This document shows, in pieces, positions 16,911 through 18,099 of a stretch of 18,099 nt of DNA (the stretch's first letter is position 1; every line of letters starts with the position of its first letter). This DNA is from Chloroflexota bacterium. Lineage in GTDB: Bacteria > Chloroflexota > Chloroflexia > QHBQ01 > JADMIH01. Below the pieces are notes generated by a model. It was not told the DNA's origin. It worked only from the letters and a program-made list of their open reading frames with translations, and did no database searches. Made by a program: the position numbers and the translations under genes. The stretch spans positions 1-18,099 of the forward strand of contig JADMIH010000073.1 in assembly GCA_015478675.1 (NCBI GenBank). Reading direction: 5' to 3'.

Positions 16911-18099
16911 ATGACCGAGCTAATCTGGGAGGGGAAGTACGGCCCCGATGGCAAGAAGACCGCCCCCTTCCACTACCCCCTCCCCTTCCAGGACATAGAG
17001 ACCGTCAACGAGCCGCAGAGCGTTCGCGCCTACAACTACAGCCTCTTCTCCGCCTCACACCCCACCGAGTGGCGCAACCGCCTCATCTGGGGCGACAAAA
17101 AGTATGTCCTGCCCTCCCTCCTCCCCGAGTTCCAGGGCAAGGTCAACCTCATCTACATTGACCCCCCTTTCGCCACAGGTGCCGACTTCTCCTATACAGT
17201 CACCATACCTGCCGACTCTTCTTCGCCCCCCCCCCACACTACCCTAGATAGTGGAGATACCACCTTCCTCAAAGAACCCAGCATAATCGAGCAAAAAGCC
17301 TACCGCGACACCTGGGGTCGTGGACTCGATGGCTATCTGCAATGGTTCTACGAGACTGTGGTATTACTCCATGAACTTCTATCCGATGATGGGAGCATAT
17401 TTGTGCATTGCGATTGGCGTGTAAACAGTCAGATACGTCTAATTTTAAACGAGGTTTTTTCGAGTGAATACTGCTTAAACGAAGTTACTTGGCTACGTAG
17501 CTCATCAGGGAAGACAACGTCCAAGAGTTTCCCACGAGATACAGATACCATCCTATATTACTCAAAGTCACCCTCGTACATATTCAACGCGGTCTTTCAA
17601 CCACTTTCGGACAAGACGATTGCGATGTACGATAAAGATGACCACGACGGACGTGGCCTATATAGATACTACCCGATGCAAAAAACTGGCGGGCCGGGCC
17701 CCGAAACGACTTATGATTACGTAGATGATAATGGCAAGATATGGAAGTGCCCAGCGAAAGGCTGGCGCATGAAGTATGAGAAGATAAAGGCGTTAGAGAA
17801 CGATGACAGGCTTGTCCTTACTGGAAACACTCTTCAAGAAAAAGCTTATTGGAACGAACGCGAGAACGAAGGGAAAATAGCAAGTAACCTTTGGAATGAT
17901 ATACCTAATCTGCAAGGCTCAAGTAACCAGATGCTAGGCTATCCCACCCAAAAACCCGAAGCTCTCCTGGAACGCATCATCCGCGCCTCTTCCAACGAAA
18001 ACGACCTGATCCTCGACTGCTTCGCGGGCAGTGGCACCACCGCAGCCGTAGCCGAAAAGCTAAACCGCCGCTGGATCACCGCAGACCTGGGCCGCTTCG
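16911..18099 (+). CDS. Class-beta DNA methyltransferase, 5' part (cut off by the window end)
   Basis: The frame runs open from the ATG at 16911 (GTGAGG eight bases upstream) to the last base, at least 396 residues. It should methylate adenine N6 or cytosine N4 using S-adenosylmethionine. The catalytic DPPF motif is at 84-87 (LIYIDPPFATGADF), and the cofactor motif FAGSGTTAA lies near residue 378, after TQKPEALLERII. Catalytic motif first and cofactor motif last is the class-beta order used by type III Mod proteins. Residues between them form the target-recognition region. Homologues I know of with this N-terminus are long and often sit beside a helicase/nuclease gene, which would lie beyond the window. 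Ten consecutive C at 17226-17235 make the gene prone to slippage. The flanks are 63-65% G+C in sampled 60-base lines, the centre 37-45%. Confidence 0.9.
   Translation, partial: MTELIWEGKYGPDGKKTAPFHYPLPFQDIETVNEPQSVRAYNYSLFSASHPTEWRNRLIWGDKKYVLPSLLPEFQGKVNLIYIDPPFATGADFSYTVTIPADSSSPPPHTTLDSGDTTFLKEPSIIEQKAYRDTWGRGLDGYLQWFYETVVLLHELLSDDGSIFVHCDWRVNSQIRLILNEVFSSEYCLNEVTWLRSSSGKTTSKSFPRDTDTILYYSKSPSYIFNAVFQPLSDKTIAMYDKDDHDGRGLYRYYPMQKTGGPGPETTYDYVDDNGKIWKCPAKGWRMKYEKIKALENDDRLVLTGNTLQEKAYWNERENEGKIASNLWNDIPNLQGSSNQMLGYPTQKPEALLERIIRASSNENDLILDCFAGSGTTAAVAEKLNRRWITADLGRF
17226..17235 (+). repeat. C10 homopolymer inside the methyltransferase gene
   Basis: Ten C in frame, encoding three Pro and the first base of His (residues 106-109). 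With nine C the frame meets TAG after six further codons or so. With eleven C it meets the overlapping TAG four bases on. The present length is the open state. Confidence 0.9.

What the first reader, a model, noticed from the sequence alone, without database searches (positions are those of the whole stretch)
17226..17235. Candidate phase-variable DNA methyltransferase controlled by a C10 tract
Seen: a run of ten C lies in frame just after the catalytic DPPF region. The frame is intact on both sides at ten C. Removing one C gives ...ACA CTA CCC TAG; adding one gives ...TAC CCT AGA TAG. Both alternative frames close within about nine codons, so the tract acts as a clean on/off switch. Known: type III mod genes of host-associated pathogens switch by slippage in simple repeats and so change genome-wide methylation. 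Inferred: this gene could be a phase-variable methyltransferase in a probably environmental lineage where such switching is little described.
Basis: partly seen in the sequence, partly recalled or inferred. Interest (0 to 1): 0.8.

Follow-up and report, generated by a model that had tools for sequence, protein, structure and literature searches.

The report
Ten-C tract in DNA-methylase loop
A bacterial DNA-marking enzyme gene contains a run of ten C's that could slip and switch the gene off, but the run sits in a freely varying loop, no examined relative has it, and nothing yet shows that the bacterium uses it as a switch.

Summary
C10 lies at 17226-17235, in frame, in a partial type III-like mod gene (16911 to the contig end). 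With 9 or 11 C the frame closes at TAG 17245-17247 or 17249-17251, separating the catalytic DPPF from the AdoMet motif. The gene's kind is supported: N6/N4 methylase domain, PADLOC type III methyltransferase, EcoP15I-type fold matches, and a Res-like gene behind mod in 5 of 5 scanned relatives.

The switch reading is possible but unproven. The tract encodes PPP-H in a poorly predicted loop whose length varies freely in the family. PPP is absent from the other 117 of 118 readable homologues, and no C/G run of 9 or more occurs in 80 relatives' genes. Given the amino acids, C10 has probability 0.24-0.47 under the gene's own codon use but 0.03 under that of 13 neighbouring genes, so it is somewhat unusual. 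In three relatives the same loop carries an in-frame palindromic insert of REP type.

Most likely this is a recent, slippage-prone tract in a permissive loop, able to make OFF mutants, not a demonstrated phasevarion. If it switches, it resembles H. pylori modH (poly-G).

The parts
16911..18098 (+). type III-like Mod (N6-adenine DNA methyltransferase), 396 residues seen, cut by the contig end; nearest relatives 659-674 aa
   Evidence: PF01555 E 4e-45; PADLOC MTase_III PDLC03633 E 7e-75; 4zcf/6k0w as best fold matches; lengths of P0002-P0005
17160..17171 (+). catalytic motif IV, DPPF (residues 84-87)
   Evidence: alignment
17208..17258 (+). indel-hypervariable loop (residues 100-116), drawn by the model between strands 95-99 and 117-121
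   Evidence: length variation; pLDDT under 50 at 88-100 and 102-116, so the hairpin itself is only weakly predicted
17226..17235 (+). C10 tract: codons 106-108 (PPP) and the first base of His109
17245..17247 (+). TAG that closes the frame if the tract had 9 C
   Evidence: coordinates read
17249..17251 (+). TAG that closes the frame if the tract had 11 C
   Evidence: coordinates read
18021..18035 (+). AdoMet-binding motif I, FAGSG (FxGxG), downstream of the tract

Best explanation
A real type III-like mod gene of an uncultured Chloroflexota-like bacterium carries a recently arisen C10 tract in a permissive, variable loop just after motif IV. The loop tolerates changes in multiples of three, so a Pro-coding C run could grow there in this lineage. 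Because the run is ten identical bases, replication slippage should now and then yield 9- or 11-C copies that stop after 111 or 113 residues, before the AdoMet motif, and so lack methyltransferase. Shown: tract, frame, stops, motif order, loop variability, absence from the relatives examined. Inferred: slippage and OFF mutants. Not shown: reversible switching in nature, selection for it, or a regulon.
For: Tract and stops. Loop length differs freely among homologues, and PPP occurs in 1 of 118 homologues with a readable motif, the window's own (these are the best 120 of 7,996 scored). No C/G run of 9 or more in 80 relatives' genes; maximum 6 in 16 ORFs from viral contigs and phylum genomes, 7 of which have the lengths of genes already among the 80. 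In-frame palindromic inserts in the same loop in L045, L053 and L055 show that it accepts foreign sequence. C10 follows from the peptide with P 0.24-0.47 under the gene's own codon use. The model gives the loop pLDDT under 50.
Against: Under the codon use of 13 neighbouring genes C10 has P 0.03, and the window's three other PPP runs use mixed codons. Runs of C/G of 10 or more are rare in most sampled genomes of one Chloroflexota class (median 4 overlapping positions a genome over 47, my count; a few have many, up to 938) and absent from relatives' mod genes, so an accident exactly in a mod gene is a modest coincidence. Low pLDDT is not confined to the loop (88-100 is low too).
Confidence: 0.58

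Rival explanations
1. A selected phase-variable mod: the C10 is a contingency tract, slippage switches Mod ON and OFF in the population and with it a phasevarion or a phage barrier.
For: Tract position, length and stops match the scheme of H. pylori modH, where poly-G tracts of 9, 11 and 12 are listed as OFF and a G10 strain, P12, as ON (passages of PMC3230613). 17.4% of type III mod genes in REBASE are reported to carry simple repeats, commensal and environmental species included (passages of PMC7394358). Low chance under neighbouring codon use.
Against: No examined relative shares a tract at this place; no length variation data; single contig.
Confidence: 0.32
2. The tract length or the frame is a sequencing or assembly error; the true gene has another number of C or is a pseudogene.
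For: Homopolymers of ten are error-prone in some long-read data (general knowledge); the platform is unknown and only one contig stands behind the protein.
Against: At ten C the frame is intact and continues through strongly conserved sequence to residue 396, which a wrong count would break two times in three; the protein cluster counts 3 member sequences, though their letters were not seen.
Confidence: 0.08

Closest known systems
Helicobacter pylori ModH (HP1522), phase-variable type III mod with poly-G tract
   Same: Type III Mod; coding homopolymer of about 9-12 G, with 9, 11 and 12 listed as OFF and G10 as the ON state of P12 (passages of PMC3230613)
   Different: There switching was studied and strains differ in tract length; here one contig, tract after DPPF in a variable loop, no variation data. 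The position of the tract in modH was not compared
EcoP15I Mod (PDB 4zcf) and the Mod of 6k0w
   Same: Motif order and fold; first four fold matches, sequence matches E 4e-16 and 1e-14
   Different: 18-21% identical in those fold matches, with rmsd 14-16 A; not known to me as phase-variable (recalled)
Homologues P0002-P0005 (71-75% identical over the visible part) and L001-L080
   Same: Same family and domain order; Res-like gene downstream in the five scanned relatives
   Different: No PPP and no C tract in the loop; loop 6 or more residues shorter in P0002-P0005

Membership tests
Type III restriction-modification Mod subunit | N6/N4 methylase domain with catalytic DPPY/F upstream of AdoMet FxGxG | tested here: met
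   PF01555; DPPF at 84-87 and FAGSG at 371-375
Type III restriction-modification Mod subunit | best profile and fold matches are type III Mods | tested here: met
   PADLOC PDLC03633 E 7e-75 ahead of type II models; 4zcf and 6k0w top the fold search. By sequence alone the top solved structure is MboIIA, a type II enzyme by recall, with EcoP15I Mod second
Type III restriction-modification Mod subunit | adjacent res gene | tested here: inconclusive
   Contig ends inside mod. In 5 of 5 relatives whose long downstream ORF I scanned it matches REase_III with E 3e-21 to 3e-27. Those 5 were picked from 10 loci inspected: L004 and L014 have a long ORF after a shorter one, L009 one cut by the contig end, L006 and L022 no ORF over 400 aa behind mod on that strand
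Phase-variable methyltransferase (phasevarion) | simple repeat in the coding region or promoter | tested here: met
   C10 at 17226-17235
Phase-variable methyltransferase (phasevarion) | gain or loss of a unit abolishes the full-length product | tested here: met
   in silico 9-C and 11-C frames stop after 111 and 113 residues
Phase-variable methyltransferase (phasevarion) | tract length varies between cells, isolates or reads | not testable with these tools
   no reads, isolates or genome held
Phase-variable methyltransferase (phasevarion) | tract kept, with varying length, in relatives | tested here: not met
   PPP absent from 117 other homologues with readable motif; no C/G run of 9 or more in 80 loci. 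Nearest relatives are only 71-75% identical, so siblings remain untested
Phase-variable methyltransferase (phasevarion) | methylation and a regulon change with the tract | not testable with these tools
   needs experiment

The most novel reading that the evidence does not exclude
An uncultured Chloroflexota lineage runs a phase-variable type III methyltransferase by C-tract slippage, with the switch newly built inside a loop that this Mod family uses as a neutral landing site for inserts (REP-like palindromes in other members): phase variation arising de novo from a permissive protein loop.
Probability: 0.25. Interest if true: 0.6.

Novelty: new member of a known kind. Interest (0 to 1): 0.36.

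Why it matters
If the tract varies in nature, it adds an uncultured Chloroflexota case to a mechanism best studied in host-adapted pathogens and shows where a new contingency tract can be born without hurting the enzyme. If not, it is a caution: a long homopolymer and quickly closing frames in a methyltransferase are not enough to call a phasevarion.

Tried and rejected
Programmed frameshifting or slippage giving a useful second product: rejected as unlikely, since the two other frames stop after 6 and 7 codons from the tract start. A DNA structure beside the tract: single-strand fold z -0.80, 41 of 200 shuffles as good, no support. The tract as a decayed REP-like insert: no resemblance seen by eye to the window's palindromes or to the L045/L053/L055 inserts; not tested further. 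Conserved prolines: rejected. A homopolymer or repeat switch as a habit of this family: not found; among 80 genes the homopolymers of 8 or more are one A9, one G8 and seven A8 (in six genes), and triplet repeats of 4-5 units occur in five genes. An interrupted relative as an OFF state: L051 is the only one of 80 whose open frame covers less than the whole match (65%), but tblastn aligns it in a single frame, so it looks like a stop codon rather than a slip. Close relatives by phylum search: 242 of 400 genomes match PepF, the best-scoring at 54% identity (57% over a partial match in G168), and 9 of 400 match mod at E up to 1e-80 with 45-60% identity, so no sibling was found. Viral contigs: 8 relatives, 7 with a readable motif and no tract; L093 starts after the loop. 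Literature: searches (3 papers, listing only; 0 papers) show no report of phase-variable methyltransferases in Chloroflexi or Chloroflexota in the held open-access library; that is a narrow search. (REP inserts in coding genes; 8 papers seen in listing only) was not followed up.

Mended after the filing check: the L045 palindrome does match the pattern; counts, the identities, the wording and the spread.

Full report
What is there. The window has one C/G homopolymer longer than 6 bases, the C10 at 17226-17235. It lies in an ORF that starts with ATG at 16911 and is open to the contig end at 18098. Counting from that ATG the tract is codons 106-108 (Pro-Pro-Pro) plus the first base of His109. 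With 9 C the frame closes at TAG 17245-17247, with 11 C at TAG 17249-17251. The quick closure is not in itself remarkable: at 16% of 296 codon positions of this ORF both other frames close within 9 codons.

What the gene is. The visible 396 residues match Pfam N6_N4_Mtase (E 4e-45) and, best among PADLOC models, a type III methyltransferase (E 7e-75). Three NCBIfam models for other DNA methyltransferases match only below their cut-offs. Sequence relatives among solved structures include MboIIA, EcoP15I Mod and the Mod of 6k0w, and the AlphaFold model (30 sequences, mean pLDDT 71, pTM 0.62) finds 4zcf and 6k0w first (TM-scores 0.41-0.51 by query length and rmsd 14-16 A, so only a fold-level match). 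DPPF precedes FxGxG. The four nearest relatives are 659-674 aa, so about two fifths of the gene lies beyond the contig. In five relatives scanned, chosen from ten inspected because a long ORF lay directly behind mod, that ORF matches type III restriction enzyme models (5 of 5, best E 3e-21 to 3e-27). Of the other five, L004 and L014 have a long ORF after a shorter one, L009 has one cut by the contig end, and L006 and L022 have no ORF over 400 aa behind mod on that strand; none of these was scanned.

Where the tract sits. In the alignment of 30 sequences, in 118 of the 120 listed homologues that show the motif (the list is the best 120 of 7,996 scored) and in 80 loci from GTDB genomes, the stretch between DPPF..DFS.T.TIP and F.KEPS.IE.KAYRDTWG varies in length and sequence. 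PPP there occurs once in 118, in the window's own protein (in 20 of the 118 the far end of the stretch was not recognised and 50 residues were taken). The model draws strands at 95-99 and 117-121 with the tract in between, but pLDDT is under 50 at 88-100 and 102-116, so the hairpin is weakly predicted and the loop probably disordered. None of the 80 relatives' genes has a C/G run of 9 or more. The same holds for 16 ORFs read from 7 viral-contig and 9 phylum loci (maximum 6); 7 of the 9 phylum loci have the ORF lengths of genes already among the 80. The nearest relatives are only 71-75% identical, so the tract is young or private to the lineage, and siblings were not available.

Is it more than chance? 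Both answers have support. For chance: the mod gene prefers CCC (12 of 15 Pro codons in its first 150 codons, 9 of 12 without the tract), and given SSPPPHT, C10 appears with P 0.24 (usage of the whole ORF) or 0.47 (first 150 codons), tract codons left out. A count of C8 in the window is only weakly in excess (3 overlapping matches, all from this tract, against 0.94; 30 of 200 shuffles reach 3, tract included in the shuffles). Against chance: with codon use of 13 other genes of the window P is 0.03, and their three PPP runs all use mixed codons; a Markov model gives 0.55% for the ORF and 2% for its first 450 nt; in 795,486 bases around relatives there is one C/G run of 10 or more, a C12 in L052 outside mod; and in 47 genomes of a Chloroflexota class, 39 have at least one C10 position with a median of 4 overlapping positions a genome, though a few have many (938, 157 and 139 at the top, counted by me). 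The window was also picked for an oddity, so these figures are not clean probabilities.

How it most likely works. A run of ten identical bases is a slippage site in bacteria (established knowledge). Losses or gains of one C would give a fragment of 111 or 113 residues that keeps DPPF but lacks the recognition region and FxGxG, so no methyltransferase (inference from motif order). Changes by three C only lengthen or shorten a variable loop, so the enzyme should tolerate them. I think it most likely that the tract is a recent accident in a permissive loop that now makes OFF mutants at a raised rate (0.58); a selected switch is next (0.32); a wrong tract length is least likely (0.08), since the frame at ten C runs on through conserved sequence. 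Nothing here shows switching.

Support for the permissive-loop view came from an unexpected side. L055 (Chloroflexi MAG) carries in this loop, in frame, an inverted repeat of the type CCCTCTCC...GGAGAGGG; its genome holds 11 places of that pattern (none in the reversed control), one of them this loop. L045 and L053 (two Bacteroidetes MAGs) carry a similar element in the same loop. The genomes hold 4 and 3 places of the pattern: the L045 loop copy is one of the 4, while the L053 copy differs from the pattern by a base and is not among the 3. L045 and L053 may share one insertion event, so at least two events are likely, not three. The window's own genome has five related palindromes between genes, but its mod loop does not resemble them by eye.

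Comparison with the known. The closest working parallel is H. pylori modH, a type III mod with a poly-G tract; the passages I saw list 9, 11 and 12 as OFF and describe P12, with G10, as ON (PMC3230613). A survey reported that 17.4% of type III mod genes in REBASE contain simple repeats, with commensal and environmental species among them (passages of PMC7394358; the survey itself, PMC5909438, is not held). So 'little described' outside pathogens is only partly right. I found no paper on such a gene in Chloroflexi or Chloroflexota in two searches of the held library (3 papers, listing only; none). It works like a phase-variable mod on paper; membership fails on conservation in the relatives examined and is untested on variation.

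Lineage. PepF of the window (322-2127) is 76% identical to an unnamed protein and 73% to proteins named Chloroflexota bacterium; proteins named Chloroflexia bacterium reach 69% at full length and 73% for a partial one. The best-scoring of 400 sampled genomes of that phylum reaches 54%. The habitat is unknown.

Noticed in passing
L055:504-653, L045:308-457, L053:220-369: REP-like palindromes (ccctctcc...ggagaggg with a nearby ggtgagg) sit in frame inside the same Mod loop in a Chloroflexi MAG and two Bacteroidetes MAGs, translated as SPPSPLLPGEGRRGEV or SPFGRGNEGEG; the L055 genome has 11 places of the palindrome pattern, one of them this loop.
   Followed up: partly
window 175-229, 5267-5321, 10524-10578, 16548-16602, 16713-16750: A dispersed intergenic palindrome family (ccctctcccttcatgggagaggg cores) with longer MITE-like frames: GTAAsTGTTCAG-like motifs lie on the outer sides, in inverted order in some copies.
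   Followed up: no
window 16911-18098: The gene is a composition mosaic: GC3 0.89 before DPPF, 0.48 in the recognition region, 0.77 at the end. Over 74 of 80 relatives that could be measured the means are 0.66, 0.40 and 0.63, and in 64% the difference exceeds 0.2, as if recognition regions were exchanged.
   Followed up: partly
window 2915-2951 and 2990-3026: Perfect 37-nt direct repeat with 75-nt spacing inside the ORF 2394-3329 (-), which fits an in-frame 25-residue duplication.
   Followed up: no
window 5015-5063 and 13706-13752: Perfect 24-bp and 20-bp inverted repeats with loops of 1 and 7 nt, possibly terminators.
   Followed up: no
window 15677-15958: Small ORF with a CxC...CxH pattern (WSCSCAFYSGYGTCSHV) that looks like a SWIM zinc finger (recalled), though Pfam gave no match.
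   Followed up: no
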